Notes: a model not told the origin generated them from the letters alone. A stretch of 64,000 nucleotides of DNA from Baekduia alba (GCF_028416635.1 NZ_CP114013.1:4216001-4280000); one strand, 5' to 3'; shown: positions 11,076 to 37,758, counted from the first letter of the stretch. Translations and numbers: made by a program.

Positions 11076-11080
11076 GAAAG

Positions 11081-11878: not shown

Positions 11879-11888
11879 GCTCCGCGCC

Positions 11889-12627: not shown

Positions 12628-12684
12628 GGCCCAAGGTGTATCGGTTCGCGACGCGCGACCGCCCGCTCACTAGATTGTCGGGAG

Positions 12685-20309: not shown

Positions 20310-20360
20310 TGTTATACCCTCGGAAACGCCTGTGGCACAAAGGCTTACGCGTCGATGTAC
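20310..20360. promoter_or_regulatory. Operator-like motif C at the element's left end
   Basis: On the minus strand this stretch reads GCGTAAGCCT followed by CCTTTGTGCCACAGGC, closely matching the AAGCCT and CCTTG...CAAGG dyads before the two recombinases (30707 and 32057). The sequence TATAAC (minus strand, 20316-20311) just beyond could be a leftward -10 box. The full spacing seen at the other copies is not preserved. Confidence 0.4.
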
Positions 20361-20391
20361 CTTCAGAATTTCCGTCTGAGACCTTGGATGA

Positions 20392-22443: not shown

Positions 22444-22474
22444 GCTACGTGTGCACAGGAAGAGGTGAGCGCCG

Positions 22475-23298: not shown

Positions 23299-24014
23299 CG
23301 CTCGGCGCGGGCGTGACGCTTGTCCTCGCGCGGCCGACCCCGACGCTGCCGGCCACTGTGCTGCAGCGCGACGCCGGCGCGTTCGCCGGGTGGCCGCTGT
23401 TCGAGCCGGAGACCGAGGCGCGGGCGGCTGCTCGACGGGGCATCCCGCGGCCGCCGAGCGACTTGCGCGGCGCCGTGCTCGAGTCCTGGTGGGACGGGGA
23501 GCGTGAGGCGGTGCTCGGCCGCGTCGCGGTGGTCGACGGCCTCGCGTCGCTGCTGGGTCGGCTGAAGACCGCGATCCGGCTGGAGCCGCATCTGTCGGCT
23601 GGTTCGCGGCGGGTCCTGAAGGGTGGGCGCAGGTTGGTGGAGTCCATCGCGCCGGATCCGGAGTCGGGCTGGCTGGCGGTCGTGACCGGGACGGGCGGCA
23701 GCGGATCGGCGCACCTCGCGCTGGTCGAGTGCTACACGGACAACAACGGAGAGAAGAGCGATATGTCGAAGATGACCTTGGCGGAAGCGTTGAGGCGTCC
23801 CGAGGTGGTCGACCATCTACGCGTCGAGCTCGGGCTGGCCGAGCCACGCACGGCGCCGGCTGCGCGGGAGCCGGAGCGCACCACTTCGGCGCGGCTGCTC
23901 GAGTCGATGATGCGGCCGGTCGAGGCGCCGCCGACGGAGAGCCCGTTCGTGGCGATGTGCAAGCGCCGCGGCCTGAACCCGGCGCACTTCGGCATGGGGG
24001 GTGGTGCTGCGTGA
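23295..24014 (+). CDS. Element protein, possibly two fused small proteins
   Basis: The frame is 239 residues from ATG 23295. The first about 155 residues are a mixed alpha/beta domain (ESWWDGEREAVLGRVAVVDG, SGWLAVVTGTGGSGSAHLAL). After a hydrophilic linker (YTDNNGEKSD) an internal ATG at 23763, preceded by GGAGAGAAG, opens an 83-residue helical tail (MSKMTLAEALRRPEVVDHL). Either this is one two-domain protein or the tail is also made separately. Function is unknown. Confidence 0.5.
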   Translation: MTLGAGVTLVLARPTPTLPATVLQRDAGAFAGWPLFEPETEARAAARRGIPRPPSDLRGAVLESWWDGEREAVLGRVAVVDGLASLLGRLKTAIRLEPHLSAGSRRVLKGGRRLVESIAPDPESGWLAVVTGTGGSGSAHLALVECYTDNNGEKSDMSKMTLAEALRRPEVVDHLRVELGLAEPRTAPAAREPERTTSARLLESMMRPVEAPPTESPFVAMCKRRGLNPAHFGMGGGAA

Positions 24015-24514
24015 GCGTGCTGAAGCCGCTCGTGGATCGGCTCTACCCGGAGCGCGAGGAGTGGGGTCCGCTCGACGAGGCGCACGGGCGGAAGCTGTCG
24101 CCGGAGGAGCACGCCTCGCTGATCGCGGGCCGCGGGCTGCCGAAGCCACGCAGGCAGAGCCTCCGGATCACCGACATGTCGGGCGTCGTCGCCGGCCGAG
24201 AGGGCGTCTCCGACGAGGCCGTCGAGCTGTTCGGTCTGGCTCAGCGGCAGGGCGGCATGCTGCGCCTGACCGAGGACATCCGGTTCGCGGGCACGCGGAC
24301 CCGGATGGACGACCTGCAGCGGCTGGTCGATGAGCTCGTGCACTTCCGACTCGTCGAGCGCGTCGAGGTCGAGCCAGCTGATCCTCGGGCTCTTCCGTCG
24401 CGTGACGGGATCCGTGTAGCAGAGTCGGTCGCGAACGTCGTGTTGTGGGCGAACGGCTGGAGCCGTTGGTCGGGTGCGAACGTCGGCGCGGTGCGGCGGC
24501 CGTCGAGCCGGTGA
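24011..24514 (+). CDS. Element protein, winged-helix-like, unknown
   Basis: This is a 167-residue protein starting at GTG 24011, overlapping the previous stop. The middle part (SDEAVELFGLAQRQGGMLRL, TRMDDLQRLVDELVHFRLVE) looks like a small winged-helix/MarR-like helical unit. The N-terminus is basic and Pro-containing. I recognise no family. It is coupled to the next gene through GTGA. Confidence 0.45.
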   Translation: MSVLKPLVDRLYPEREEWGPLDEAHGRKLSPEEHASLIAGRGLPKPRRQSLRITDMSGVVAGREGVSDEAVELFGLAQRQGGMLRLTEDIRFAGTRTRMDDLQRLVDELVHFRLVERVEVEPADPRALPSRDGIRVAESVANVVLWANGWSRWSGANVGAVRRPSSR

Positions 24515-24891
24515 CCGGAACGTCCGTCACGCCTGAGGGAGCCACGGAGGCCACCCTCCGCAGCCTCGCTGCTCTCCACGCACGACACGAGGCCGACGTC
24601 GCCAACCAGATGGTCGAGGGCCTGCGGATCGCCTGCCCCGACGAAGACGAGGACCGCATCAACGAGGCGTGCGACTGGCTGGCCGCGACCGACGTCCGGG
24701 CACAGAACTCGGCGGCGCGCCTGCGTCTACGCGAGCCGTTGTTGGAGGCCTTCTCGCAGCCGAACCCGAACCGGCGGCGACGCGACATCAACCGCCTGAT
24801 CACGGAGGAGCGAGCGCGGCTTGACGCGCGCGCTGGCGTGGTGCTGCTCGAGCCAGCGCTGCAGATCCTCGAGGCCGCGCGGAGAGCTTGA
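24511..24891 (+). CDS. Helical element protein, unknown
   Basis: This 126-residue, almost wholly helical protein is rich in Arg and acidic residues (SLAALHARHEADVANQMVEG, RRRRDINRLITEERARLDAR). It starts GTG 24511 in a GTGA overlap. It is similar in style to head-tail connector or tape-measure-chaperone proteins, but no motif supports a call. Confidence 0.45.
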   Translation: MTGTSVTPEGATEATLRSLAALHARHEADVANQMVEGLRIACPDEDEDRINEACDWLAATDVRAQNSAARLRLREPLLEAFSQPNPNRRRRDINRLITEERARLDARAGVVLLEPALQILEAARRA

Positions 24892-24894
24892 CCG

Positions 24895-25281
24895 ATGCCG
24901 GCGCATCGCAGACGCCCACCGGTGCCGGAGCAGGTCTTCGCGGGCCTGCGCCGGTGCCGCGGTGAAGGTATGAGCTTCGCGGAGGCGTGGGCGGCCGTCG
25001 TCGAGACGGCCACCACGACCGATCGCCATCCGGTGCGTCTCCCCCACGCGACCGAGGAACGGCGCGGCTGGATCGAAGCGTTGAGCGCGACGCGCGCGGA
25101 GTGGGAGGCGTGCTGGCACGGCGAGCCAACAGCGGTGAGCCGGATGCTCGACGCGTTCGCCGATCTCGACGACCGCTCGACCCGGGCGATCCCGCGTGCT
25201 GACACTCCTGTCCGGCTTCACGTCGTGCTGCCGCCGGCCTCGATCAGCCGGGCGCTCCCGGCGGAGCGCCGCGCGGCGTGA
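24895..25281 (+). CDS. Element protein, unknown
   Basis: This is a 128-residue protein, ATG 24895, three bases after the previous gene. It has a helical Trp-containing core (GMSFAEAWAAVVETATTT, RGWIEALSATRAEWEACWHG) and an Arg/Pro C-terminus. No recognisable domain is present. Placement four genes before the tape measure would fit a tail assembly factor, but this is context only. Confidence 0.45.
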   Translation: MPAHRRRPPVPEQVFAGLRRCRGEGMSFAEAWAAVVETATTTDRHPVRLPHATEERRGWIEALSATRAEWEACWHGEPTAVSRMLDAFADLDDRSTRAIPRADTPVRLHVVLPPASISRALPAERRAA

Positions 25282-25694
25282 CCGGTCGAGCGATGCCCGA
25301 TCGTCGAGCGGTCGTCCTCTCGGCGACGGCCAAGCGCCGCTACGCCGAGCGCGTCCGGCCGGACCTGTCGTTCGAGGAGGCGGCCGAGGATCTGCGCCGG
25401 CGTGCCCGTAGGGGCCGCATGTGGCGTCGCCGCCCAACGTGGCTGAAGTCGTTGGAGCGTCCGGACAACGGGGCCGGGTTCCTCCTGCTGGCCGACGAGC
25501 CGCAGGCCGTGTTGCCACTCGTGCGCAACGAGTCCGGCGACGTCGTCGCGACCACGGCGAAGCCGCGCCGGCCGCGGCCGGATCTGAACGGCCTCCGGTG
25601 CCCTGAACCTGAGGCGTCAGCGCTCGTGCGCGGCGCCGTGGCGGGGCGCCCCGCGAGTGGCGCGCTCGCAGATGATCGGAGCGGTGACACATGA
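25278..25694 (+). CDS. Element protein, basic, unknown
   Basis: This is a 138-residue, strongly basic protein. It starts GTG 25278 (overlapping the previous TGA) or ATG 25293. It contains SATAKRRYAERVRPDLSFEE and a beta-hairpin-like middle (AGFLLLADEPQAVLPLVRNE), then a disordered Arg/Pro tail. I recognise no family. The end overlaps the next start. Confidence 0.45.
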   Translation: MTGRAMPDRRAVVLSATAKRRYAERVRPDLSFEEAAEDLRRRARRGRMWRRRPTWLKSLERPDNGAGFLLLADEPQAVLPLVRNESGDVVATTAKPRRPRPDLNGLRCPEPEASALVRGAVAGRPASGALADDRSGDT

Positions 25695-25972
25695 CGACGC
25701 TGAACGACACCGAAGCGGTGGCGGCGCTGATGGGGCTGCTGTCGCGGCGGGTGAACGTCAACGTCGGCGGTCCAGGCGACGAGGCGATGGTGCTGGGCTT
25801 CACCGGCACGCTCGGCGTGCTGGCGTCCGGGGACGATCAGCTCGTGCTCGGGCTCGACGCCGCTACAGGCGTCGTCGTGGTCCCGACGAGCGCCGCGGCG
25901 GTCGTCGGCGACGGCGAGATCGTGTTCGCGTTCAGCGGAGTGCGCGTCCGGATCTCCGAGCGGGAGGACTGA
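25691..25972 (+). CDS. Small beta-rich element protein
   Basis: This 93-residue acidic protein, ATG 25691 overlapping the previous stop, is predicted to be beta-sandwich-like (MVLGFTGTLGVLASGDDQLV, VVVVPTSAAAVVGDGEIVFA). It lies three bases before the tape-measure-like gene. No motif identifies it; a tail-tube or adaptor role is only a positional guess. Confidence 0.5.
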   Translation: MTTLNDTEAVAALMGLLSRRVNVNVGGPGDEAMVLGFTGTLGVLASGDDQLVLGLDAATGVVVVPTSAAAVVGDGEIVFAFSGVRVRISERED

Positions 25973-25975
25973 GCG

Positions 25976-28900
25976 ATGCCCGCGACGATCGAGTCGAGCT
26001 TCGTCCTCCTCGACAGAGCATCGGGGCCCATCAAGCGCATCCGGCGCGAGCTCGTCGGGATGGAACGTGACGCGCGGAACGCGGGCACTGCGATGGACAA
26101 CATCGCCGGCCCGAAGGCCGCCCGCGACCTCGAGGCTCTGGCACGCGAGACGCGCGGCGTCGACGGCGCCATCAAGGACCTGCGCCGTGACCTCGGCGTG
26201 GCCGGCAAGACGCTGTCGGTGTACGAGGGCCGCGTGAGCGGCGCCCGTCGCGAGACCGACCGGATGCGCGCGTCGACCGATCGGCTCGTGAAGAGCATGC
26301 GGACGCTTGGCACGATCGACGCTCGACCGCACGTCGAAGTTGATGGACTTGCTAGGGCCCGTGCAGATCTGGCCGCGTTCCGGCGCGAGCTCAACGCGAT
26401 GAACCGGCTCGACGTCGGCCCGGGCCCCGGGTTCGGCGGCCGCGGCGGCTTCGGCAGTCGCGCCGGCGTCGGCCTGTCGGGAGGCAGCGGCGGCGCGTCG
26501 GCCTACGCGTCGGCGTCCGTGTTCGGTGGTGGCGCGGCGCGCGCGCTGGGCTTGGCGGCGGTCGCGGCGCTGCCGGCGGTGCAGTCCCTCGGCGGCGCGA
26601 CGACGGCGCTGGGCGCCTCGCTGGCCGGCGCGGGCCTCGGCGCCGGCGCTGGCGCTCTCGCCGGCGGCGGAGCGCTCGCCGCCGGGGTCGGCGCACTCGC
26701 CGCGGTGGCGGCACCGGTGAAGAAGAACCTCGAGGCCGCGACGAAGGCCCAGCAGCAGTACACGACTGCGGTGCAGGACTTCGGCCGGAAGTCCAAGCAG
26801 GCGATCCGCGCGAAGCGGGACCTTGACCGCGTCATGGCCGGCGCGGCGCCGGGCACCGCGGGCTTCCTTACGCAGCGCTCGGGGTTCGGTCGCGACTGGA
26901 ATCGGGCGTCGCGCGGTGCGCAGACCGATCTTCTCGGGCTCGGCACCGGGGCGATGCGCCGCGTCCGTCAGCGCGCGCTGCCGGGCCTTGGCGCGGACGC
27001 GGGGCTTGTGGCGTCGGCGGCGCGCACGCAGGGGCTCGCGCTGACCGACACGCTGACCGGGCCGGCGAGCCTCGGGATCATCAACTTGCTGTCGAAGTCG
27101 TTCGCGGGCAACCTCGACGAGGCCGGGCACACGGTCGAGAACATCGCGTTGACCTTGGGGCGGCTGGCGGTCGACGCTCAGCCGTTCTTCTCCGAGGGCA
27201 TGGGCTGGGCAGAGGCGACGACCCGCGGGTGGCGCGAGAGCTCCAAGGACATCGGTCATGTCCGGCACGAGATGGCCGGCTACGTCGACGATCTCCGCGC
27301 GTGGGGCCACCTGACGGAGTCGGCGTTCGAGCTCGTGCGCGACATTGCCGCGCCCGGCCGACGGCCGGGTACGAGCATGGTCGGCGACCTCACCGAGCAG
27401 CTCGACCACTGGGACGACTGGGCGCAGCGCAACCCCGTGAGGATCGAGAGGTTCTTCGACGACTCGGTGAAGTCGACCGAGGACCTCGCCGGCGCGCTGG
27501 GCGAGGTCGCGAAGGACCTGCACGAGGTCGCCGACGTGTTGACGCCGGTGCTGTCGCGCTTCGCGGCGCTGGCCCAGATCGGCGGCGGGCTGGGCTTGCT
27601 GGCGCCGACGGCGATCCGCGTCGGGCTGGGCCGGCTCGCGGGCGGCGGAGGAGCGGGCGGCGCGGGTGCCGCGGCGTCCCGTGCGGCCGGAGGTGCTGCG
27701 GGTAGCGAGCTCGTCGCGGGCGCCGGCGCCGGCTACCTCGCGGCGCGCGGCGCGGGCGCGCTGTCGTGGAACCGAGCGGTCGCCACGCCCGAAGTCTTCG
27801 CAGCGCGGTACGGCAGCGTGCCCGGAGCGCGCTACGGGATGCCCGCGTCGTCGCTGGGCGCGCGGTCATCCGCGCTGTCACGGCTGCGAGGCCCCGCGGC
27901 GTCGGCGGGCCGGTTCGTCGCTCCGATCGTGGCTATCCAGGCGGCGTTGGGCGCGGCGCAGGATCCGGGCGGCGCGGGTCTTCTAGGCCGGTGGCGGGAC
28001 ATCACGTCGTCGATGTCGCTCGGCCTAGTCCCGAGCCAGGGCAAGCTCAACGACCGGTCCAACCGGCAGAACTTGGGCGCCCTGCAGGGCTACGTCGACG
28101 GCCTGCCGGACAACGAGAACACCTACGGCGGCGCCCGCCGCCAGATCGCGTCGCTGCGCGGCCTGCGCGGTCGCGTGCAGGCCGGTGGCGGCTCGGCTGA
28201 CGTCCGCAACACGGTGACGCGTGCGATCGACGCCGAGATCGAGGCGCGGAAGGAGCTGCTGCCGTCGCTGCGCGCAGAGCGCGACGCACGCAGCCGCGAT
28301 CGGGGCGCTTCGCAGGGCCAGAGCGTGGCCACGGCGTTCCGGTCTGACCTGCGTCACCTGGGGCCGGATAAGGCGTTCGGTCAGCTGCGGTCGAGCCTCC
28401 TGGGCGCCGGTGGGGTCGCCGACCGCAACTTCCCGGGCGGCCGGCAGCTTGCGCAGTCCGGGCTCGAGGCGGCGAGGGCCGCCGCCCAGGGCAACCCGGC
28501 GCTGCAGAAGGAGTACGACAAGCTCGCCAAGGGCGTCAGCGACCGCTTCGCCGACATGGGTCACAACGTCGTGCTCGCCAACGGGCACATCCTGTCGGCG
28601 ACGCAGAAGGACTGGCCGCGGATCCGCGACGCGCTCGCCAAGCCCGCCGAGCAGGCGCGGCAGCGCGTAAGCGACGCGTTCAGCGCGATCCAGCTGCAGG
28701 CGATCGGCGCGCTGACCGACATGGGGTACTCGCCGTCGCAGGCTCGAAGCCTCGTGCGCGGCGCTGCGGGCAACGGCACCGCCAGCATCAGCCACGCCGT
28801 CTCGAACGCGAAGGCGACGAAGGCCTACAACACGTCGGCGGCATCGCCGGCGGCGCAGGCGTTCGGCCCCTCGCCCGGCAACCCGGCGAAGATCGGCGAT

Positions 28901-30019
28901 GGTGTCGGCAGCGACCGGCCGACGCTGGCGAACACGACGGGCGGCGCCGGCCTGATGGGTGCCAACCCGAACCTCGGCGTCTACGCCGCGCTGGGCGCGA
29001 AGTACGGCGACCACGTGACCTCGGGGGCGCGCCCGGGCTCGAAGACGCTGAGCGGCAACGTCTCGTTCCACGACTCCGGTCACGCGATCGACATGGCTGG
29101 TGGCGATCTCCGCGGGCTGGCACGCGACCTGTACACCAACCACGGCTCCGGACTCGAGGAGCTCATCAGTCCGTTCCCGGAGTACAACCTCAAGAACGGC
29201 AAGCCGTTCAAGTACCCGTCGGCGATCGAGGCGCAGCACAGCGGCTCGAACGCTCATGTCCACGTCGCCGATGTCGACCCGGGCGGCGCCGGCGGGTTGT
29301 CGGCGTCGCTGAGCCTGGACACGACCGGGCCTGGGCTGATGACCGTCGCGCTGAAGGGGACGAAGTCCGGGATCGGCGGCGTGGCCGGCGCGCTGGCCGA
29401 CGCCGCCTCGGGCGCCTACGCCGCGGGGCTGACGCAGAAGCTCAACGGCTCGCTCGGCGGCGGCGGCGGTGGCGCGGCGCTCGGCGGCGATCTGCCGTCG
29501 ATGATCGCCGCCGCTGGCCTGCCGGCGATCTTCAACGCGATCGTGGGCGCGGAGTCCGGCGGCAACCCGCGCGCGCACAACGCGTCGGGGGCCGACGGCC
29601 TGACGCAGCTGCTCGGGCATCAGGATCTCGTCGAGCGTGCCGCGCTGATGCTCGGCCGCCCGGCCGACGTCTACGACCCGCTGGTCAACCTCGCCGCCGC
29701 GAAGCTCCTCTACGACCAGAACGGGCTCGCGCCGTGGACCGCCTCGCGGCCGGTGTGGGGCAAGGCGATGGGCGATGGCACGGGCATCGCGCGGCCACGG
29801 TTCACCGGCTCGTCGATCCCGGCTGGTCGCTTGCCGTCGGTGCGGCGCAAGGGCCACAACGCCGGCCCGCTGGTCGCGCCGGGCGCGGTCGTCATCCACG
29901 CCCACGGCGCCAACGCGGAGGAGATCGCCACGATGGTCGGTGCACACCTCAACGCCTTCGCCGATCTCGTTATGGACGAGATCCAGTTGGGCCACGAGGA
30001 AACCGAGGCGACGGCCTAG
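25976..30019 (+). CDS. Tape-measure-like protein with M15 peptidase and lytic transglycosylase domains
   Basis: The 1347-residue protein is the longest in the element. Residues 1-150 are charged coiled coil (RIRRELVGMERDARNAG). About 180-250 are Ala/Gly-rich hydrophobic helices, and the middle is Ala-rich helical, the typical tape-measure composition. Residues about 1005-1105 form an M15-type metallopeptidase domain: SFHDSGHAIDM with H1032 and D1039, then AHVHV with H1094/H1096 (SxHxxGxAxD and HxH). Residues about 1175-1290 are an SLT domain with catalytic E1193 in GAESGGNPRAHNASGADGL. Both domains would open cell-wall peptidoglycan during DNA or effector entry. Its TAG stop is nested in CTAG with the stop of the convergent gene. 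Confidence 0.85.
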   Translation: MPATIESSFVLLDRASGPIKRIRRELVGMERDARNAGTAMDNIAGPKAARDLEALARETRGVDGAIKDLRRDLGVAGKTLSVYEGRVSGARRETDRMRASTDRLVKSMRTLGTIDARPHVEVDGLARARADLAAFRRELNAMNRLDVGPGPGFGGRGGFGSRAGVGLSGGSGGASAYASASVFGGGAARALGLAAVAALPAVQSLGGATTALGASLAGAGLGAGAGALAGGGALAAGVGALAAVAAPVKKNLEAATKAQQQYTTAVQDFGRKSKQAIRAKRDLDRVMAGAAPGTAGFLTQRSGFGRDWNRASRGAQTDLLGLGTGAMRRVRQRALPGLGADAGLVASAARTQGLALTDTLTGPASLGIINLLSKSFAGNLDEAGHTVENIALTLGRLAVDAQPFFSEGMGWAEATTRGWRESSKDIGHVRHEMAGYVDDLRAWGHLTESAFELVRDIAAPGRRPGTSMVGDLTEQLDHWDDWAQRNPVRIERFFDDSVKSTEDLAGALGEVAKDLHEVADVLTPVLSRFAALAQIGGGLGLLAPTAIRVGLGRLAGGGGAGGAGAAASRAAGGAAGSELVAGAGAGYLAARGAGALSWNRAVATPEVFAARYGSVPGARYGMPASSLGARSSALSRLRGPAASAGRFVAPIVAIQAALGAAQDPGGAGLLGRWRDITSSMSLGLVPSQGKLNDRSNRQNLGALQGYVDGLPDNENTYGGARRQIASLRGLRGRVQAGGGSADVRNTVTRAIDAEIEARKELLPSLRAERDARSRDRGASQGQSVATAFRSDLRHLGPDKAFGQLRSSLLGAGGVADRNFPGGRQLAQSGLEAARAAAQGNPALQKEYDKLAKGVSDRFADMGHNVVLANGHILSATQKDWPRIRDALAKPAEQARQRVSDAFSAIQLQAIGALTDMGYSPSQARSLVRGAAGNGTASISHAVSNAKATKAYNTSAASPAAQAFGPSPGNPAKIGDGVGSDRPTLANTTGGAGLMGANPNLGVYAALGAKYGDHVTSGARPGSKTLSGNVSFHDSGHAIDMAGGDLRGLARDLYTNHGSGLEELISPFPEYNLKNGKPFKYPSAIEAQHSGSNAHVHVADVDPGGAGGLSASLSLDTTGPGLMTVALKGTKSGIGGVAGALADAASGAYAAGLTQKLNGSLGGGGGGAALGGDLPSMIAAAGLPAIFNAIVGAESGGNPRAHNASGADGLTQLLGHQDLVERAALMLGRPADVYDPLVNLAAAKLLYDQNGLAPWTASRPVWGKAMGDGTGIARPRFTGSSIPAGRLPSVRRKGHNAGPLVAPGAVVIHAHGANAEEIATMVGAHLNAFADLVMDEIQLGHEETEATA

Positions 30020-30183
30020 CGATTCGGAGCCCAGCCGAACGCGACGTCGGCGGTGTGCCCGTCCGGGATGGGCAGCTCGTCGTCGCGCAAGTACAGGCCG
30101 TTGCGTGCCGCAAGACACGTCGTGGCGGGATGGACGGCGGCGGTGGTACCCGAGAGCGGGCCGGCAAGGAAGACGACAGTCAT
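30016..30183 (-). CDS. Small leftward protein, unknown
   Basis: This is a 55-residue protein starting ATG 30183 (MTVVFLAGPLSGTTAAVHPA) with a hydrophobic N-terminus and an acidic end (LRDDELPIPDGHTADVAFGW). The frame is also open further upstream to 30264. It converges on the tape-measure gene, and their stops interlock in CTAG. It lies 40 bases downstream of another leftward gene. No family is recognised. Confidence 0.4.
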   Translation of the reverse strand: MTVVFLAGPLSGTTAAVHPATTCLAARNGLYLRDDELPIPDGHTADVAFGWAPNR

Positions 30184-30223
30184 AACCGAGAGGTTCACGC
30201 TGCCGTCGATCGAGCCGAGCGAC

Positions 30224-30691
30224 CTACTCCCACCACCGGTGACCGAGCTTCGGCTCACGGCCAACGTCAGCGGCGACTTCGTCGAGAAGTCGTTGTCCGC
30301 GCCGGAGATCGTCGACGGGCATGCCGGTCTCTCTGGCCAGCCGCTCGTCGGTCCACGGCGCAGGCGGAAACGCGTTGGCCATGTGCCGGATGACCAAGAT
30401 CCCGAGCACGCCGAGATCGATCGTGTCGCCGCCGTCGCCGAGATTGGCGCGCTGATGCCGGTCCTCAGGCTGCTTGAACCCGCCAGCGGTCAAAGCCTCG
30501 TGGAGCCACACGCGGCCGTTGGTCGGCGCTGAGCCCTCCTTCGGCGCCGGCGCCGGGATGCGCTCGGCCAGACTTTCGCTCATCGCAGCGACGAGCTCGT
30601 CGTCGGTCATGGTGTCGACGGGGTGCGTGTCGCGAAGGATGGCGCGGACTACTTCGAGGTCTTCCGGCGTCGGGTCGTCGAGGTTGTGCAT
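30224..30691 (-). CDS. Acidic leftward protein, unknown
   Basis: This 155-residue protein starts at ATG 30691 (MHNLDDPTPEDLEVVRAILR). It is helical and acidic, with a Pro-rich linker and a C-terminal part (WTDERLARETGMPVDDLRRG) resembling a small DNA-binding helical bundle. It is divergent from recombinase 1, with operator-like module A between them. It is therefore a natural candidate for the repressor or antagonist of that module, but no HTH is certain. Confidence 0.5.
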   Translation of the reverse strand: MHNLDDPTPEDLEVVRAILRDTHPVDTMTDDELVAAMSESLAERIPAPAPKEGSAPTNGRVWLHEALTAGGFKQPEDRHQRANLGDGGDTIDLGVLGILVIRHMANAFPPAPWTDERLARETGMPVDDLRRGQRLLDEVAADVGREPKLGHRWWE

Positions 30692-30706
30692 CTCTCAATT
30701 TCTAGT

Positions 30707-30803
30707 GTTACCACCGGTCGCACAAGCCTGTGGCTTCTCGGGAGCCCTTGCGCCACAAGGCCTTCCGTCGACCAGTGACAGCGCGCTGACCGCGTGGTAC
30801 CGT
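30707..30803 (+). promoter_or_regulatory. Operator-promoter module A (recombinase 1)
   Basis: The elements in order are GTTACC (30707), 17 bases later the dyad AAGCCTGTGGCTT (30724-30736), a second dyad CCTTGCGCCACAAGG (30746-30760) and an extended -10-like TGGTACCGT (30795-30803). The first two are spaced exactly as in modules B (32057) and D (34451). It lies between the leftward acidic protein and recombinase 1. Confidence 0.6.
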
Positions 30804-30816
30804 CGCCGCGACAACC

Positions 30817-30852
30817 AAAAAGCGCCCCCGCGACGCGCCAACGTCCGGGGGC
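30817..30852 (-). terminator. Hairpin with A-tract in the recombinase 1 leader
   Basis: GCCCCCG (30824-30830) plus GACG pair with CGTC plus CGGGGGC (30842-30852) around a 6-base loop with one bulge. AAAAA at 30817-30821 becomes a T-tract after the stem on the minus strand. It is thus a textbook intrinsic terminator for leftward transcription, and a stable 5' leader hairpin in the rightward mRNA. Confidence 0.6.
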
Positions 30853-30876
30853 ATGGCCCAAGGAGTGTCTACCTCC

Positions 30877-32043
30877 ATGAGCACGACGAAGCCTACGCGC
30901 GCCCGAAGCGCGACCGGCATCTACGTGAAGCATCGCGACGCCTGCGCGTCGCACCACGGCGGCGCCTGCACCTGCCGCCCGGCCTATCAGGCCGCTGTCT
31001 GGTCCGCGCGCGAGCGCCGCCGGATCCGCAGGCACTTCGACTCGTTCGGCGACGCCAAGGCCTGGCGCGCTGAGCAGCTCGTCGGGCTGAGGAAGGGGAC
31101 CGTGAAGGCCCCGACTCGCACGACGCTGGCCGAGGCGGCGGCCGAGTGGCTGGCCGGCGCCGACGCGGGGACGATCCTCGCCCGCAACCGCCAGCCGTAC
31201 AAGCCGAGCGCGCTGCGCGGGTACCGGCGTGCGCTCGAGCAGCGCGTCGTGCCCGAGTTGGGGCACTACAAGTTGTCGGCGATCGACCACGTGATGTTGC
31301 AGGACTTCGCCGACCGGCTCGCGCGGACGCTCGACGCGTCGACTGTGCGGAACACCCTGAGCCCGGTCCAGGCGATCATGCGCCGCGCGGTGAAGCGCGG
31401 CGTGATCGCGATCAACCCGGCGGTCGGGCTCGAGCTCCAGGCGCCGCAGGGCCGCCGCGACCGCGTCGCCTCCCCCGCCGAGGCTGCCGCGCTCCTGTCC
31501 GCGCTGGCCGAGGGCGACCGCGCGCTGTGGGCGACGGCGCTGTACGCCGGGCTGCGACGCGGTGAGCTCCGTGCGCTGCGTTGGGACGACGTCGACCTCG
31601 AGGCGAACGTCATCCGTGTCGCGCGGTCGTGGGACGACGTCGCCGGCCCGATCGAGCCGAAGTCGCGCGCCGGCGTGCGCACCGTGCCGATCGCGTCGGC
31701 GCTGCGCGCGCTGCTTGTCGAGCATCGGCTGCGCCGCGGCGGCCACGGTGAGGATCTCGTCTTCGGCCACGTCGACGAGCGCTCGTTCGAGCCAAGCAGC
31801 GTGCGCCGGCGTGCGCTGACCGCATGGAAGCGCGCCAAGCTCCTGTCGATCGGCCTGCACGAGTGCCGCCACACGTTCGCGTCGCTGATGATCGCCGCGG
31901 GCGTCAACGCCAAGGCGTTGTCGACCTACATGGGGCACTCGAGCGTGACGATCACGTTCGACCGCTATGGCCACCTCATGCCGGGCAACGAGGAGCAGGC
32001 CGCCGGGCTGCTCGACGACTACCTAGCCGCCGCCAGCGGCTGA
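30877..32043 (+). CDS. Tyrosine recombinase 1
   Basis: This 388-residue recombinase starts at ATG 30877; AAGGAG lies 11 bases upstream, and ATG 30853 is an in-frame alternative. An N-terminal segment with Cys/His (HRDACASHHGGACTCRPAYQ) precedes the SAM-like core-binding domain (SALRGYRRALEQRVVPELGH). The catalytic domain carries R in AGLRRGELRALRW, HECRHTFAS (H-x-x-R), GHSSV and the nucleophile Y364 in FDRYGHLMPG. It should cut and rejoin DNA. It is not next to either att site and is similar to recombinase 2, so its substrate may be internal or a second target. It is expressed from module A. Confidence 0.88.
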   Translation: MSTTKPTRARSATGIYVKHRDACASHHGGACTCRPAYQAAVWSARERRRIRRHFDSFGDAKAWRAEQLVGLRKGTVKAPTRTTLAEAAAEWLAGADAGTILARNRQPYKPSALRGYRRALEQRVVPELGHYKLSAIDHVMLQDFADRLARTLDASTVRNTLSPVQAIMRRAVKRGVIAINPAVGLELQAPQGRRDRVASPAEAAALLSALAEGDRALWATALYAGLRRGELRALRWDDVDLEANVIRVARSWDDVAGPIEPKSRAGVRTVPIASALRALLVEHRLRRGGHGEDLVFGHVDERSFEPSSVRRRALTAWKRAKLLSIGLHECRHTFASLMIAAGVNAKALSTYMGHSSVTITFDRYGHLMPGNEEQAAGLLDDYLAAASG

Positions 32044-32056
32044 CGGTTCGCGCTGC

Positions 32057-32141
32057 GTTACCGCCGGTAGCGTAAGCCTATGACTTGACCGGATCCCTTG
32101 TGGGATAAGGGCTAGCGCGCGACCGCTCGGGATGCTACGGT
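32057..32141 (+). promoter_or_regulatory. Operator-promoter module B (recombinase 2 operon)
   Basis: GTTACC (32057), the dyad AAGCCTATGACTT (32074-32086) at the same 17-base offset as in module A, a second dyad CCCTT...AAGGG (32095-32111), and an extended -10-like TGCTACGGT (32133-32141). It starts 14 bases after the recombinase 1 stop. Confidence 0.6.
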
Positions 32142-32157
32142 CGCGTTGTTCCTCAAC

Positions 32158-32198
32158 AAAAAGCGGCCCCGACGGTGCTGGTAACACCGGCCGGGGCC
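32158..32198 (-). terminator. Hairpin with A-tract in the recombinase 2 operon leader
   Basis: GGCCCCG and CGGTG (32165-32177) pair with CACCG and CGGGGCC (32185-32198). AAAAA at 32158-32162 gives a T-tract after the stem on the minus strand. The layout is the same as the hairpin before recombinase 1, again between promoter and ribosome site. Confidence 0.6.
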
Positions 32199-32221
32199 TG
32201 CCAACCAGGAAGGTGATTTCC

Positions 32222-32527
32222 ATGGCCAGCATGTGGAAGCGTACGCGCGAAGACGTCGCGCAGCAGTACGGCCCGCCCCCCATCGGGTTCGACCCGGGCA
32301 CGGCGGACCTCCCCCAGCGCCACCGAGACTTGACCGTCGAAGGTCTCGAGGCGGCGGCACGCATCGTCGCGGCGATCGCGCTGCAGGCCACGCCCGAGGA
32401 CGTCGCGCGCGGCGACTTCGAGACCGAGGTTCGAGACCTGTGGATGGACCGCCTGCAGCGCGATGAGGCGATGGCGCACGTGGACCTCCTCGTCGCGGCG
32501 CTCGCGCCGCTCGGAGCTGCGGCATGA
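32222..32527 (+). CDS. Small protein preceding recombinase 2
   Basis: This is a 101-residue protein with ATG 32222 behind AGGAAGG. It is mainly helical (SMWKRTREDVAQQYGPPPIG at the N-terminus; EGLEAAARIVAAIALQATPE; DLWMDRLQRDEAMAHVDLLV). There is no known family. The stop overlaps the recombinase 2 start (ATGAGC), so the two are translated together; it may be an accessory or directionality factor. Confidence 0.6.
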   Translation: MASMWKRTREDVAQQYGPPPIGFDPGTADLPQRHRDLTVEGLEAAARIVAAIALQATPEDVARGDFETEVRDLWMDRLQRDEAMAHVDLLVAALAPLGAAA

Positions 32528-33717
32528 GCGGGCGCCGCGGCGGCCTTCCGACCGGGGTGCAGCGCAAGCACTCGCGCGCGTGCCCGGCGTTCAACGACAA
32601 GGACGCGCGCTGCCGGAGCAAGGGCTGTACCTACCAGGTCCAGGCGGGGCCGCGCGGCGACCGCCGGACGAAGACGTTCCCGACCGTCAGCGCCGCGGTC
32701 GCGTGGAAGCGCGACATGGAGTCGGCACGCGCCCGGGGCAAGGTCGCGCCCGGCCGCGCGCCTACTCTTCGCGAGGCGGCGAACGAATGGGTGGCGGACG
32801 CGCGCGCCGGCGTCGCCATGGGCCGTGGCCGGACGCCGCTGAAGCCGAGCACGCTGCACAGCTACGTGCGCTCGCTCAGGAACGACTGGATCCCGCGGTA
32901 CGGCGATGTGCGCCTCGACGACCTCGGCGACCGTCTCAACGAGGCCGTGGCGAACCTCCAGCGCCGCGGTCTGAAGCCGTCGACGGTCCGCAACGCGGTG
33001 ATGCCCGTCCGGGCGATCTACCGCTACGCCGTGCGGATGGGGTGGGTGGCGCACAACCCGACTGAGCGCCTCGAGCTGCCGGCGGGCTCAGGCCGCCGCG
33101 AGCGGACGGTGGCGATCGCCGACATCCCGCGGTATCTGGAGGCGCTGTCCGCGGGCGACCGCGGCCTGTGGGCGACTGCCTTCTACGCGGGCCTTCGTTG
33201 CGGCGAACTGCAGGCGCTCCGGCGGAGCCACGTCCACCTCGACGCGGGCTTCATCGAGGTGGTCGCATCGTACGACGCGCGCACCGGTACTTGGAGCGCT
33301 CCGAAGTCAGCCGCCGGGCACCGCCGCGTGCCGTTGGGTGCGGTGGCACGATGGCTGGTGATCGACGAGGACCTGCCGCCCGACGCGCTCGTGTTCGCAC
33401 GGGGACGGCTCGCCGGGACGGCGAGAGGTCCCGGGGATGAGCCGTTCAACGACAGCTCGGTGTGGCAGCGGGCGAACATCGCGTGGCGCCGTGCTGAGCT
33501 GACGCAGGTGTCCTTGCACGACGCGCGCCACACCTGCGCCTCGGTGGCCATCGCGGCGATGGCCGCGCGCGGCGTGTTCAACCCCAAGATGCTGCAGGCG
33601 ATGATGGGCCACGCGTCGATGCAGATGACCTACGACCGGTATGGCCACCTCTTCCCGGGGCAGGAGGCCGAGCTCGGCGACATGCTGCGGGACCTCGTGA
33701 CCGGAGCGGAAGGATGA
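32524..33717 (+). CDS. Tyrosine recombinase 2
   Basis: This 397-residue recombinase starts at ATG 32524 inside the preceding stop. Its N-terminus has a Cys cluster (HSRACPAFNDKDARCRSKGC) in the same place as recombinase 1, followed by a core-binding domain (STLHSYVRSLRNDWIPRYGD). The catalytic motifs are AGLRCGELQALRR (Arg), HDARHTCAS (His-x-x-Arg), GHASM and YDRYGHLFPG (Tyr). It is clearly paralogous to recombinase 1. It lies in a three-gene operon with a small upstream protein and a downstream coiled-coil/HTH protein. Confidence 0.88.
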   Translation: MSGRRGGLPTGVQRKHSRACPAFNDKDARCRSKGCTYQVQAGPRGDRRTKTFPTVSAAVAWKRDMESARARGKVAPGRAPTLREAANEWVADARAGVAMGRGRTPLKPSTLHSYVRSLRNDWIPRYGDVRLDDLGDRLNEAVANLQRRGLKPSTVRNAVMPVRAIYRYAVRMGWVAHNPTERLELPAGSGRRERTVAIADIPRYLEALSAGDRGLWATAFYAGLRCGELQALRRSHVHLDAGFIEVVASYDARTGTWSAPKSAAGHRRVPLGAVARWLVIDEDLPPDALVFARGRLAGTARGPGDEPFNDSSVWQRANIAWRRAELTQVSLHDARHTCASVAIAAMAARGVFNPKMLQAMMGHASMQMTYDRYGHLFPGQEAELGDMLRDLVTGAEG

Positions 33718-34163
33718 TGTCGCCGTACGACGCGCGCGTCGATCAGCTGACCGCCGAGATCGCCGACCTCGAGCGCCACTTGGCCTACGTCGATCAGCGG
33801 GCGGTCGCGCTGCGGCTCGACCGCGACCACACCGCCGCCCGCCTGCAGGACGCGAAGACGGCCCGCGACCGCGCCTGCAAGGTCCGGGACGCAGCTGGCC
33901 GAGTCAGGGAGGGCGTATCGGCCGACGAGCCGCCCCCACGGCGGAGACCGACGCCGATCGCGATCAACGCTAGCGACGCGGCGGCCATGCTGGGTGTCGG
34001 CCCAGACTTCTTCCGCGAGCACATCGTGGCCGAGGTCCCGTGTATCCGCCGCGGGCGACTCCGGCTGTTCCGCGTCGCGGACCTGGAGCAGTGGGCGGCG
34101 AGCGCCGCGGAGGCGCCGGCCGGGCGCGGACGCGACTTCGGCGTCGGCGAGTTCTCCTCCTAG
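33714..34163 (+). CDS. Coiled-coil protein with excisionase-like HTH
   Basis: This 149-residue protein starts at ATG 33714, overlapping the recombinase 2 stop. The N-terminal 65 residues are a coiled coil (RVDQLTAEIADLERHLAYVD). After a Pro/Arg linker comes a MerR/excisionase-type helix-turn-helix: INASDAAAMLGVGPDFFREH, then IRRGRLRLFRVADLEQW. It could be the directionality factor for recombinase 2 or a regulator of the shared operators. Confidence 0.65.
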   Translation: MMSPYDARVDQLTAEIADLERHLAYVDQRAVALRLDRDHTAARLQDAKTARDRACKVRDAAGRVREGVSADEPPPRRRPTPIAINASDAAAMLGVGPDFFREHIVAEVPCIRRGRLRLFRVADLEQWAASAAEAPAGRGRDFGVGEFSS

Positions 34164-34169
34164 CGGCGC

Positions 34170-34197
34170 GAGGCCCGTCCGCCGCGCGGCGGGCCTC
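34170..34197 (+). terminator. Hairpin after the recombinase 2 operon
   Basis: GAGGCCCG (34170-34177) pairs with CGGGCCTC (34190-34197), starting seven bases after the stop codon. There is no T-tract, as is common in high-GC actinobacterial terminators. Confidence 0.55.
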
Positions 34198-34450
34198 CCG
34201 TGTCACCGCGCGTTGTCATCGGCGAGCGCGTCGGTCCCGGCCATGTCCGCGTGGCGCGGCGCGCACCGCCAACTGCCACGCGGCTCAGACACCGAGAGCA
34301 TCGTGCAACCCAACGGTTCAGGAGCGACTTGCGCTGAGTTCCGACCGCGCGTTCTCGTAGCCTCAGCGATGTCGCCTTCTGCTTGCGACATCTTCAAGAG
34401 GGCCGCCCCGCAATGGGCGGCCCTCGTCCGTTCCAAGCCTCCATCGCTAA
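34198..34450. other. Non-coding stretch with a strong dyad
   Basis: I see no gene. At 34398-34425 there is a perfect 11-bp stem (GAGGGCCGCCC / GGGCGGCCCTC, 6-base loop CGCAAT), a probable terminator insulating module D, which starts 26 bases later, from upstream transcription. Confidence 0.5.
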
Positions 34451-34534
34451 GTTACCTTTGGTCACATAGGCCATCAACTTGGTTCCGTCCGCTCGGCTGT
34501 GCAACCTACGTGCTGCGTCGTTCCTAAACGACGC
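34451..34534 (+). promoter_or_regulatory. Operator-like module D (initiator operon)
   Basis: GTTACC at 34451 and AGGCCATCAACTT at 34468-34480 keep the exact 17-base offset of modules A and B. A leader hairpin GCGTCGTT/AACGACGC (34515-34534) follows, as at A and B but without the A-tract. The second dyad is not clear and the -10 is uncertain (TGCAACCT around 34500). Confidence 0.5.
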
Positions 34535-34565
34535 CGGACCCGAAGATGCCGAGCAGGAGCAACAC

Positions 34566-34943
34566 ATGCAGGAGTCTGGTCGCCGCCTAGCGCGTCGAGC
34601 CTCGCAGCGTCAGCGCGGCGAAGCGTTCGCGGCTTTGTGCGCCGGCGCCGCGCGCCGCACCCTCGCCGCCCGCGGCGAAGACCCCAACCGAGGACTGCGC
34701 TTTGAGGATCTCGCGTTGGTCAGCGCACGCCAGCGGCGACGCATCACCGCCAGCTTGACGCACCGACCAGCTCGCGCTGCCGCACCGACCCGGCGCGGCA
34801 GCAGCCGACAGCCGCACGCGCGCCGCACCGCCCGTGTGACTAGCCCGCCGGGATCGGGCGACGGCCCACCAGGTGATCCAGACCCGGCGGACGGCCTACG
34901 CCTCCGACGCCGCCGGGAAGAGCCCATCGGAGGCGCCGCATGA
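34566..34943 (+). CDS. Basic small protein, first gene of the initiator operon
   Basis: This is a 125-residue protein starting ATG 34566, with AGGAG at 34553. The N-terminal about 65 residues form helices (ARRASQRQRGEAFAALCAG, RFEDLALVSARQRRRITASL), and the remainder is Arg/Pro/Gly-rich and probably disordered. No family is recognised. It overlaps the initiator-like gene start by four bases. Confidence 0.5.
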   Translation: MQESGRRLARRASQRQRGEAFAALCAGAARRTLAARGEDPNRGLRFEDLALVSARQRRRITASLTHRPARAAAPTRRGSSRQPHARRTARVTSPPGSGDGPPGDPDPADGLRLRRRREEPIGGAA

Positions 34944-35821
34944 GCGGCCTTGTGACGTTCCGCCACGACCTGGGGGACGACGTGACGCGCGTGAAGCACG
35001 CGCGGTGCGGCGCGGTCTTCACGATCGCCGAGGTCGACGACGACATTTCTCCGGCCCAAGACGGCAGCGGCAAGCTGCTCTGCGAGCGCTGCGAGAGCGA
35101 GCGCGCTGGCGCCGGCTACGGCTTCATGCCCGTTCGCCGGCGCTCGGCGCTCGAGCGCGCTGGCGGTAAGCCGTACGGACCGCTCCCGTGGTGGTTCGCG
35201 CGCGGTGAAGGCCTACACCTGTCGCCCACGGAGTTCCGGCTGGTGGTGGCGTTGTGGGGCTTCCAGGGCGAGCATGAGGAGGCCCGGCCGACGCTGGCCA
35301 CGCTGGCGGCGCTCTGCGAGCGCGGCGAACGTCACGTCGGACGCGTGCTGGACAGCCTCGTCGAGCGTGGTCTCATCCTTCGATGGCGGCGGTCGCGTCG
35401 CCAGGCCTACCGCTACGACGTCGGGCCGCTCGTCCGGGGCGAAGTCGTCGCTGGCCGTCAGCCGAGTGCGGATACCGATGTACGGACTCGCGACGCGCCG
35501 AGTGCGGACACCGACGTACGGTCTGACGAGATCGGCCACGACGCAAGCGAGGTCGAAAACGTCGCGCCGGGCACGCGAGTCCGGACATCTACGTCCAGTC
35601 AGACCGGACATCAGCGTCCACACTCAGTACGGACGTCCACGTCCGGTGAAGAAGAACTAGCGGAAGAAGAACTACAAGAAGAAGATCCGACTTCGTCGGG
35701 TCGCGCGGGGCGCGACTTCGATGATGAGGACGCAGCCGCGTTCCAGAGCCTTCCGGCGAAGTGGCGGGCTATAGGTGAGCGCTGGGCTGCAGACGGCGAC
35801 GGCGAGTCGGTGGTCGCATGA
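34940..35821 (+). CDS. Replication-initiator-like winged-helix protein with internal iterons
   Basis: This is a 293-residue protein, ATG 34940 overlapping the previous stop. An N-terminal segment with CGAVF and CERCESE could bind metal. Residues about 80-155 are a winged helix (LSPTEFRLVVALWGFQGEHE, RPTLATLAALCERGERHVGR, SLVERGLILRWRRSR) of the type found in phage/plasmid initiators such as lambda O and HTH_36 proteins. Residues 175-236 are encoded by five iteron-like repeats, giving repeated SADTDVR and VRTSTS motifs. An acidic EEELAEEELQEED stretch follows. An N-terminal DNA-binding domain, ori inside the gene and a C-terminal partner-recruiting tail is the lambda O plan. I infer that this protein starts replication of the excised element; no helicase gene is visible. 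Confidence 0.6.
   Translation: MSGLVTFRHDLGDDVTRVKHARCGAVFTIAEVDDDISPAQDGSGKLLCERCESERAGAGYGFMPVRRRSALERAGGKPYGPLPWWFARGEGLHLSPTEFRLVVALWGFQGEHEEARPTLATLAALCERGERHVGRVLDSLVERGLILRWRRSRRQAYRYDVGPLVRGEVVAGRQPSADTDVRTRDAPSADTDVRSDEIGHDASEVENVAPGTRVRTSTSSQTGHQRPHSVRTSTSGEEELAEEELQEEDPTSSGRAGRDFDDEDAAAFQSLPAKWRAIGERWAADGDGESVVA
35466..35647. repeat. Five iteron-like repeats, candidate origin
   Basis: Five 21-23-bp units start at 35466, 35502, 35579, 35602 and 35627. All carry the core GGA(C/T)-N6-GT(C/A)C, an interrupted dyad best seen as GGACATCTACGTCC (unit 3) and GGACACCGACGTAC (unit 2). Units 3-5 are spaced 23 and 25 bases apart; units 1-2 are 36 bases apart. They lie inside the initiator-like gene. 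Confidence 0.65.
35648..35686. other. Purine-rich direct repeat next to the iterons, candidate unwinding region
   Basis: GAAGAAGAACTA occurs at 35648-35659 and 35663-35674, followed by AAGAAGAAGATC. The strand is almost all purine and is the lowest-GC stretch of the neighbourhood. Its place directly after the iterons matches the easily melted tract of lambda-type origins. Confidence 0.5.
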
Positions 35822-36234
35822 TCGGCGGCTTCGACGGAAACGCGCATGAACCCGGTCGCCTGCATCCCGATGACCTTGAGGACTTGGCCGACCTCGTCGC
35901 GGAACGTCTTGCGGCCCGCCTCGCCAGCACCGTTGCCCCGTCCCTGCTGGCGGGCGAACTGGTTGACGCGGCCGCGGTCGCGTCGCGCCTGGGCGTCGCC
36001 CCAGCGTGGGTTCGCGAGCATGCCGACGAGCTGGGCGCGATACGGATGGGAGCTGGTCCACGGCCGCGGTTGAGATTCGACATCGACGCGGCTGCGAGCG
36101 CGTATGCAACGCGGTCCAGTGCGCCGAGCCCAGGCCCTGCTGAAGAGCCGCAGCGACCGGCGCGGCGCAGGCGCGCGTCGGGGAGGCGCCCGACTGCCTC
36201 ATCACGACTCGCCGTTCCGGCGTGGGAGGAGTAG
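35818..36234 (+). CDS. Excisionase-like HTH protein
   Basis: This 138-residue protein starts at ATG 35818, overlapping the initiator stop. Residues 48-95 form a MerR/excisionase-type HTH (LVDAAAVASRLGVAPAWVRE, GAIRMGAGPRPRLRFDIDA), similar in plan to the HTH of the recombinase 2 operon. The C-terminal about 35 residues are Arg/Pro-rich. Position just before the tRNA-proximal integrase makes it the best candidate for that integrase's directionality factor. Confidence 0.6.
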   Translation: MIGGFDGNAHEPGRLHPDDLEDLADLVAERLAARLASTVAPSLLAGELVDAAAVASRLGVAPAWVREHADELGAIRMGAGPRPRLRFDIDAAASAYATRSSAPSPGPAEEPQRPARRRRASGRRPTASSRLAVPAWEE

Positions 36235-36385
36235 CGTGCGCGGCGACATGGAAGTGGCCGGGCGGCGCGCTAACGCCCCCGGCCGTGGCGCAGCGGGAAT
36301 GAGCCGCGGCGCGCGTGCATCGTTGCAGGTGACGGTCCACCTCCGGCTCAGCGCCCGCGGCACCTCCCACCCGAGAGGAGCGGTG

Positions 36386-36430
36386 ATGGCAAGGCATAGG
36401 TGTTGCTCAGCACGGCCCGAGGCGGCGTGA
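36386..36430 (+). CDS. 14-residue leader peptide coupled to the integrase
   Basis: ATG 36386 follows AGAGGAG by five bases, one of the best ribosome sites in the element. The frame reads MARHRCCSARPEAA and stops at 36428-36430, sharing its last base with the integrase ATG (TGATG). The integrase itself has no good ribosome site, so its translation probably depends on this leader. The tandem Cys and rare-looking context could make it a sensing peptide. Confidence 0.55.
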   Translation: MARHRCCSARPEAA

Positions 36431-37698
36431 TGCCGCGGCCGGCGACAGGCAGCGTGGTGACGAAGGCCACTGCAGCCGATGACGTGTCGTTCGCGCTGCG
36501 GTTCCGGGCGCTCGGGCGGCGGCAGTTCGTGCACCTCGGCTACGCGTCGGAGGGCTGGACGGAGAGCAAGGCGCGGGACGAGCTGACGTTGACGATGGCG
36601 GCGGTGCGTCGCGGGGCGTGGCAGCCGGTTGAGTCGGTGGTCATGGGGCCGCCGGCGGAGATCCCTCGAATCGAGGACTTCGCGAACGTGTGGCTTGACG
36701 CTGAGCGTGATCGTGGTCTCGGAGCGCGCACGATCGAGGACCTCGAGTGGCGGCTGGGGCACCTGCTGTCGTGGTTCGTGCACAAGGCCGGTGACCCCCG
36801 CGTGAGCGAGATCAGCGTGCAGATGGTCGACGAGTACCGCGCGGCGAAGAAGCGTCAGGGGAAGCTCTCCGCCGGGTCGATCAACCGGACGATCGACACG
36901 CTCTCTGCGGTCCTGGACTTGGCGGTCGAGTACGAGCACATCGAGAAGAACGTCGCACGCGGCAAGCGCCGCAAGCTCGCGACGAAGAAGAAGCGGCCCG
37001 TGTACCTGGACGGCGTCGATCAGATCGCGGCGGTGCTCGACGCCGCGCGTGAGCTCGACGACGCGAGGGAGTCGCGGACCGCGGATCGGTACCCGCTGGT
37101 CGCGACGCTGCTGTTCGCCGGGCCACGGGTCGAGGAGGCCGGCGAGGCGCTCGTTCGGGACCTTGACCTAGCGCGCGGGTTCCTCGAGGTCGGGCGGTCC
37201 AAGACGGCAGCCGGGATGCGGAAGATCGACCTGCTGCCGGTCCTGCGCGATGTGCTGGCGGCCTACAAAGCCGGCCACCGCGGCGGAGTAGACGACCTCC
37301 TGTTCTCGACGCGGGAGGGCACCGCACGCGACCGCCACAACATCGCTCGGCGCGTGCTGGCGCCCGTGGTGGCGCGTGCCCACAAGTTGCTCGAGGAGCG
37401 AGGCCAGCAGCCGATGCCGCAGGGTGTGACGCCCCACAAGCTGCGCCACACCTACACGTCGATCCTGTTCGCGATTGGCCGCGATGCGCCCTACGTTATG
37501 GGCCAACTCGGCCACACCGATCCCGCGTTCACGCTCCGGGTGTACGCCCACGTCATGCGCTTCTCAGCGGATGAACGTGCTCGGCTGAAGGCCCTCGTGG
37601 ACGGTGTCGAGTGGGCACCAATGGGCACTCAGGGCGTCGGGACAGCCGCGTCGCCCGTCTCCCCTGACCCCGGCGGACTCCCCGAAACTACGTCCTAG
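36430..37698 (+). CDS. Tyrosine integrase of the tRNA-Pro element
   Basis: This 422-residue integrase starts at ATG 36430. An N-terminal beta-rich arm-binding region (SFALRFRALGRRQFVHLGY) leads to a core-binding domain (ARTIEDLEWRLGHLLSWFVH) and the catalytic domain, with R in LLFAGPRVEEAGEAL, HKLRHTYTS, GHTDPAF and Tyr in LRVYAHVM. It reads toward tRNA-Pro and ends 17 bases before the att repeat, so it is the enzyme that integrated the element there. It differs from recombinases 1 and 2 and lacks their Cys-rich N-terminus. Confidence 0.92.
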   Translation: MPRPATGSVVTKATAADDVSFALRFRALGRRQFVHLGYASEGWTESKARDELTLTMAAVRRGAWQPVESVVMGPPAEIPRIEDFANVWLDAERDRGLGARTIEDLEWRLGHLLSWFVHKAGDPRVSEISVQMVDEYRAAKKRQGKLSAGSINRTIDTLSAVLDLAVEYEHIEKNVARGKRRKLATKKKRPVYLDGVDQIAAVLDAARELDDARESRTADRYPLVATLLFAGPRVEEAGEALVRDLDLARGFLEVGRSKTAAGMRKIDLLPVLRDVLAAYKAGHRGGVDDLLFSTREGTARDRHNIARRVLAPVVARAHKLLEERGQQPMPQGVTPHKLRHTYTSILFAIGRDAPYVMGQLGHTDPAFTLRVYAHVMRFSADERARLKALVDGVEWAPMGTQGVGTAASPVSPDPGGLPETTS

Positions 37699-37714
37699 CA
37701 GGGGTTTCGGGGAG

Positions 37715-37758
37715 TCGGGACGGCCGGATTCGAACCGGCGACCCCCTGCTCCCAAAGC
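37715..37758. repeat. Right attachment site (44-bp direct repeat)
   Basis: This is identical to 19274-19317 and forms the 3' 44 bases of the intact tRNA-Pro, starting at its discriminator base. The identity stops at the anticodon loop/stem, and the sequences diverge immediately outside on both sides. Confidence 0.93.

What the first reader, a model, noticed from the sequence alone, without database searches (positions are those of the whole stretch)
30707..34534. A shared operator-promoter module repeated before three transcription units of one element
GTTACC and, exactly 17 bases later, an AAGCC(T)...(G/A)(A/G)CTT dyad occur at 30707, 32057 and 34451, each ahead of a rightward unit (recombinase 1; recombinase 2 operon; initiator operon). 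Two also share a second dyad CCTT...AAGG and an extended -10-like TGGTACCGT or TGCTACGGT. A related motif in reverse orientation is at 20310-20360. One regulator probably coordinates recombination and replication; candidates are the leftward 155-residue protein and the two HTH proteins.
Basis: seen in the sequence. Interest (0 to 1): 0.75.

Follow-up and report, generated by a model that had tools for sequence, protein, structure and literature searches.

The report
Shared control site in mobile element
An 18.4-kb phage-like element in an actinobacterial genome carries the same short DNA control site in front of all four of its main gene blocks, a distant relative of the element keeps that site at the matching places, and its recombinase genes also carry a structured RNA leader that occurs in front of mobile-DNA genes in many related genomes.

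Summary
The motif is real. GTTACC at 30707, 32057 and 34451 is the left half of a 15-bp dyad (site A, GTTACC-N3-GGTNRC). All four lie in promoter regions of one 18.4-kb element (19274-37758, bounded by a 44-bp tRNA-Pro repeat). The dyad occurs seven times in the 5.86-Mb genome, four of them here. A related element in another genus, proteins about 40% identical, keeps A at the two matching promoters (15/15 and 14/15 bases). Relatives of recombinase 1 and the initiator elsewhere lack A: it follows the element, not the gene. Best reading: A is the operator of an element-encoded regulator of the tail, recombinase and replication units. This is a known kind of system; binding was not tested. Dyads B and C were not found in the relative. 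Also: both recombinase units carry a two-hairpin RNA leader that buries the ribosome site, has no match in Rfam 15, and occurs in 101 of 232 genomes of the order.

The parts
19274..37758 (+). Integrated element, about 18.4 kb, between two perfect 44-bp copies of the tRNA-Pro 3' part (19274-19317 and 37715-37758)
   Evidence: direct repeat D10; tRNA-Pro 37714-37788
20248..20262 (+).
   Evidence: identical 15/15 in L105
30707..30721 (+). Site A, copy 1 (GTTACCACCGGTCGC), between the leftward 155-aa gene and recombinase 1
32057..32071 (+). Site A, copy 2 (GTTACCGCCGGTAGC), before the small gene plus recombinase 2 unit
   Evidence: 14/15 in L105
34451..34465 (+). Site A, copy 3 (GTTACCTTTGGTCAC), before the initiator operon
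30724..30736 (+). Dyad B (AAGCC-TGT-GGCTT)
   Evidence: not found in L105
32074..32086 (+). Dyad B, one mismatch (AAGCC-TAT-GACTT)
34468..34480 (+). Dyad B, degenerate (AGGCC-ATC-AACTT)
   Evidence: sequence
30746..30760 (+). Dyad C (CCTTG-N5-CAAGG)
32096..32110 (+). Dyad C (CCTTGTGGGATAAGG)
20329..20343 (+). Loose dyad C-like sequence (CCTGTGGCACAAAGG)
   Evidence: sequence; weak
30795..30803 (+). Extended -10-like TGGTACCGT, with GTGACA 17 bp upstream as a -35-like hexamer
   Evidence: prediction only
32133..32141 (+). Extended -10-like TGCTACGGT; no good -35
   Evidence: prediction only
30813..30879 (+). Two-hairpin RNA leader of recombinase 1; the second hairpin pairs GGAG with CTCC before ATG
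32155..32224 (+). Two-hairpin RNA leader of the recombinase 2 unit
20392..20940 (+). HTH protein heading the tail operon; preferred candidate binder of site A
   Evidence: weak late-activator and Mor matches; homologue in L105; model HTH plus long helices
30224..30691 (-). Leftward 155-aa protein, unknown family; disfavoured as the A binder
30853..32043 (+). Recombinase 1 (tyrosine integrase family); the ATG after the leader is 30877
   Evidence: PF00589
32222..32527 (+). Small protein, first gene of the recombinase 2 unit
32524..33717 (+). Recombinase 2 (tyrosine integrase family), 42% identical to recombinase 1
33714..34163 (+). HTH_17 excisionase-like protein; second candidate binder of A
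34940..35821 (+). Replication-initiator-like protein
   Evidence: phrog_391 and phrog_270
35818..36234 (+). Small protein with a weak small-terminase/HTH match; disfavoured as the A binder

Best explanation
Site A (GTTACC-N3-GGTNRC) is the DNA-binding site of a regulator encoded by the element itself. It lies upstream of the predicted promoters of the four main rightward units (tail operon, recombinase 1, recombinase 2 operon, initiator operon), so one protein can switch virion, recombination and replication genes together. Where a -10 can be recognised, the centre of A is 61-84 bp upstream of it, which suits an upstream activator site. A also lies 16-30 bp from the start codon of the leftward 155-aa gene and could repress that gene. 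The most likely binder is the 20392 HTH protein, acting on its own promoter too; the 33714 excisionase-like protein is second. Shown: the site, its confinement to the element, its conservation in a diverged element. Inferred: that a protein binds it, which protein, and whether it activates or represses. After the promoter, both recombinase messages carry a two-hairpin RNA leader that would limit translation.
For: Four copies, all in intergenic DNA and all with the perfect half-site away from the gene, in an 18.5-kb element; 0.007 expected in shuffles. Seven matches in the whole genome, four of them here. Related element L105, proteins 39-42% identical, has 15/15 and 14/15 identical sites upstream of the matching genes, in upstream DNA that has otherwise largely diverged. 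A is absent upstream of about 30 recombinase 1 relatives and of the G144 initiator homologue, so it goes with the element and not with the gene. 20392 and 33714 are in both elements; the 155-aa protein was not found in G127 and the 35818 protein not in L105. 20392 weakly matches late-activator families.
Against: Only two elements are known to carry A, so the conservation rests on two pairs of sites. No binding or expression data. No recognisable -10 at the initiator unit or at the L105 tail unit. B and C were not found in L105. The similarity of the recombinase 1 and 2 upstream regions could partly come from an old duplication. The 20392 fold searches gave no family.
Confidence: 0.7

Rival explanations
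1. A is read by a host regulator (stress or growth signal) that the element has hooked onto, not by an element protein.
For: The same site is kept in elements of two host genera, and no binder has been proven.
Against: Outside the element only 3 matches occur in the other 5.84 Mb, against 2 for the reversed-pattern control, and they look incidental, one of them at the start of a coding gene. A host regulator would be expected to have host sites.
Confidence: 0.1
2. The sites are leftover homology from duplicated upstream regions with no present function.
For: Recombinases 1 and 2 are 42% identical and their upstream regions share the order A-B-C-promoter-leader.
Against: A is also before the tail and initiator units, which are not duplicates of the recombinases. 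It is kept in L105 while neighbouring bases diverged.
Confidence: 0.1
3. A (with B and C) are binding sites of the element's tyrosine recombinases, for example arm-type sites, and not operators.
For: Two of four copies lie just upstream of recombinase genes; recombinase 2 is present in both elements.
Against: The element ends are at the tRNA-Pro repeat, 3.3 kb or more from the nearest A except for the 20248 copy, which is about 0.9 kb inside. Copies are 1.3-10 kb apart, whereas arm sites normally cluster within a few hundred bp of the crossover (established knowledge of lambda-type systems). Many relatives of recombinase 1 lack A.
Confidence: 0.08

Closest known systems
P2 late promoters and the Ogr activator (described in PMC3931495)
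   Same: One dyad repeated upstream of several operons of one phage, read by one element-encoded activator.
   Different: P2 consensus is TGT-N12-ACA and Ogr is a zinc finger; no Ogr-type finger was found in six frames of the element, and the TGT-N12-ACA matches do not lie at the four promoters. Here recombinase and replication units share the site as well.
Stoperators of Cluster A mycobacteriophages (PMC6550527)
   Same: One repressor, many short sites through an actinophage genome, mostly in one orientation relative to transcription.
   Different: Stoperators are 13-bp, asymmetric and scattered also outside promoters; A is a 15-bp dyad found only before transcription units. The consensus GATGAGTGTCAAG (recalled from memory) has one match with up to 2 mismatches, not at a promoter.
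SAS/ESAS repeats of Cluster K mycobacteriophages (PMC3203893)
   Same: Repeated sequence with inverted repeats ahead of a subset of genes in an actinophage; conserved with the gene family across relatives.
   Different: SAS (GGGATAGGAGCCC) sits at the translation start; it is absent from the element with up to 2 mismatches. A sits upstream of the promoter.
Mor/late-activator family (Pfam PF08765, PHROG 836)
   Same: The 20392 HTH region weakly matches these models.
   Different: The match covers about 43 residues and the Pfam Mor score is below the curated cut-off.

Membership tests
Element-wide operator set under one phage-type regulator (kind of system) | Same short site in front of several transcription units of one element and rare elsewhere in the genome | tested here: met
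Element-wide operator set under one phage-type regulator (kind of system) | Site conserved at matching promoters of a diverged relative | tested here: met
   one relative only
Element-wide operator set under one phage-type regulator (kind of system) | An element-encoded protein binds the site | not testable with these tools
   needs a binding assay
P2 Ogr late-promoter system | TGT-N12-ACA at the promoters | tested here: not met
P2 Ogr late-promoter system | Zinc-finger activator CX2CX22CX4C | tested here: not met
   no match in six frames of the element
Cluster A stoperator system | 13-bp asymmetric sites at many places in the genome | tested here: not met
   A is a 15-bp dyad with 4 copies; one weak match to the recalled consensus
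Cluster K SAS/ESAS | GGGATAGGAGCCC at translation starts | tested here: not met
Mor/late activator (for the 20392 protein) | Match above the family's gathering score | tested here: not met
   PF08765 16.5 bits against a cut-off of 24.9
Mor/late activator (for the 20392 protein) | Same fold as solved relatives | tested here: inconclusive
Any Rfam 15 family (for the leader RNA) | Match at or above the gathering score | tested here: not met
   the one strong hit, DUF3800-VI in L174, lies on the other strand outside the leader

The most novel reading that the evidence does not exclude
The two-hairpin leader is an undescribed class of cis-acting RNA used by many kinds of mobile DNA across this bacterial order: it keeps the ribosome site of recombinase and transposase messages closed until some signal or factor opens it. 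Here it is combined with an element-wide operator, giving the recombinases two layers of control.
Probability: 0.45. Interest if true: 0.7.

Novelty: new member of a known kind. Interest (0 to 1): 0.5.

Why it matters
A defined operator set with two leading candidate regulators makes the coordination of recombination, replication and virion genes in this element directly testable, in a lineage for which our literature search found no study of such elements. The leader RNA gives a sequence handle on mobile genes in about 40% of the genomes searched in the order and may be a new class of regulatory RNA.

Tried and rejected
B and C dyads as the conserved signal: not found at the matching promoters of L105. 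The 155-aa protein as the A binder: not found in G127; its model is of low confidence. A third A-like match in L105 (rc 14156, GTGACCGACGGTAGC) lies in a hairpin just after a tail gene, probably a terminator; not counted. A helical-phasing argument from the A to -10 distances (61, 72, 84) was dropped: too few points. IMG/VR searches with the initiator, 20392, tape measure and recombinase 2 found no relatives; that with recombinase 1 found only distant integrases, as did the scan of genome contigs. Fold searches of 20392 gave no decisive match; rows covering residues 10-65 include LuxR-type HTH domains at Z about 5.5-5.8, too low to rely on. RNA model R1 had hairpin 2 one column off and was replaced by R2.

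Full report
What is there. The window lies in a 5.86-Mb single-contig genome; the window is 71% G+C. A perfect 44-bp direct repeat at 19274-19317 and 37715-37758, part of a tRNA-Pro gene, bounds an integrated element of 18.4 kb. Rightward it carries an HTH gene (20392) and a tail-gene operon ending in a tape-measure-like gene (25976-30019), recombinase 1, a small gene plus recombinase 2 plus an excisionase-like gene, an initiator operon, and a third recombinase next to the tRNA; leftward a membrane-type protein (19485) and the 155-aa protein (30224).

The observation. The three reported copies exist as described. GTTACC is the left half of a 15-bp dyad, here called site A: GTTACC-N3-GGTNRC. 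A fourth copy, GTTACCGATGGTCAC, is at 20248 before the HTH/tail operon. All four are on the + strand, in intergenic DNA, with the perfect half away from the gene. Shuffles of the element give 0.007 expected. The whole genome has 7 matches to the dyad, 4 of them here; the other three look incidental. The long A+B motif without mismatch has 3 matches in the genome and, allowing 1 mismatch, none in 200 other genomes of the order.

Conservation. A search of the order with the 20392 protein led to a related element, L105 (G127, another genus of the family), with homologues of 20392 (39%), the tape measure (40%), the small gene, recombinase 2 (42%) and the excisionase-like protein. Upstream of its 20392 homologue is GTTACCGATGGTCAC, identical to the window; upstream of its recombinase 2 unit is GATACCGCCGGTAGC, 14/15. 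The upstream DNA has otherwise largely diverged. Dyads B and C were not found there. A was not found upstream of about 30 recombinase 1 relatives, at the initiator homologue in G144, or at distant 20392 homologues. So A goes with the element and stands in front of modules whose relatives lack it.

Which regulator. The 155-aa protein has no match in G127, the initiator none outside G000 and G144, and the 35818 protein was not found in L105. They are unlikely to read A. The 20392 HTH protein and the 33714 excisionase-like protein are in both elements. 20392 is favoured because it follows an A site in both elements and weakly resembles late activators; its model is an HTH plus long helices at moderate confidence, and fold searches did not decide its family. 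This is inference until binding is tested.

Promoters and leader. Extended -10-like TGGTACCGT and TGCTACGGT are present, and L105 has TGCTAGCGT; A is centred 61-84 bp upstream of them. After the promoter both recombinase units have a two-hairpin leader; hairpin 2 pairs the ribosome-binding GGAG with CTCC just before ATG (in the recombinase 2 unit the pairing is GGAAG with UUUCC). A covariance model finds this leader in 101 of 232 genomes of the order, with 13 copies in this genome. Of 30 loci examined, 8 precede a tyrosine integrase, 2 a serine recombinase, 2 a DDE transposase and 2 an HTH_17 protein; the rest precede small or unassigned proteins (L148 and L156 by their recombinase 1 homology). 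Paired changes support both hairpins in 33 distinct sequences, although that alignment was fitted to the model; the six seed sequences support them too. Rfam 15 has no match to it, and literature searches by word and by sequence string found no description. Most subscription papers are not held, so it may be described elsewhere. An Arthrobacter phage has hairpin 1 alone before an HNH gene.

Judgement. The shared module is real and most likely an element-wide operator set, a known kind of system (compare PMC3931495, PMC6550527, PMC3203893) whose tested sequence hallmarks this site does not share. The operator reading is held at 0.7; 20392 as the binder at about 0.4. The leader RNA is the more novel part.

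Noticed in passing
window 30813-30879, 32155-32224, 36245-36301; L148-L177: Two-hairpin 5' leader RNA with the ribosome-binding site in hairpin 2, before recombinase, transposase and other genes in 101 of 232 genomes of the order; no Rfam 15 match. The 36245 copy before recombinase 3 is weak (31 bits).
   Followed up: partly
L105:3148-4536 (minus strand): The L105 recombinase 2 holds an insertion of about 65 residues inside its catalytic part that resembles the N-terminal domain of recombinase 1 (by eye): a possible two-armed integrase.
   Followed up: no
window 30853-37698: One element carries three tyrosine recombinases; recombinases 1 and 2 are 42% identical, the third stands next to the tRNA-Pro end. 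Which one does the integration is unknown.
   Followed up: no
window 20392-30019; L105: Tail genes (collar-like protein, tape measure) were found but no capsid or large terminase gene in the proteins scanned; the element could be a satellite, a tail-like particle or a remnant.
   Followed up: no
L107 (G144), 5612-12681: A same-genus genome has relatives of the collar protein, initiator, 35818 protein and recombinase 3 in one stretch, without site A; the window element looks like a mosaic of an L105-like and an L107-like part.
   Followed up: partly
L174:1693-1746: Rfam DUF3800-VI RNA (49.6 bits) lies on the opposite strand close to a two-hairpin leader of a transposase gene.
   Followed up: no
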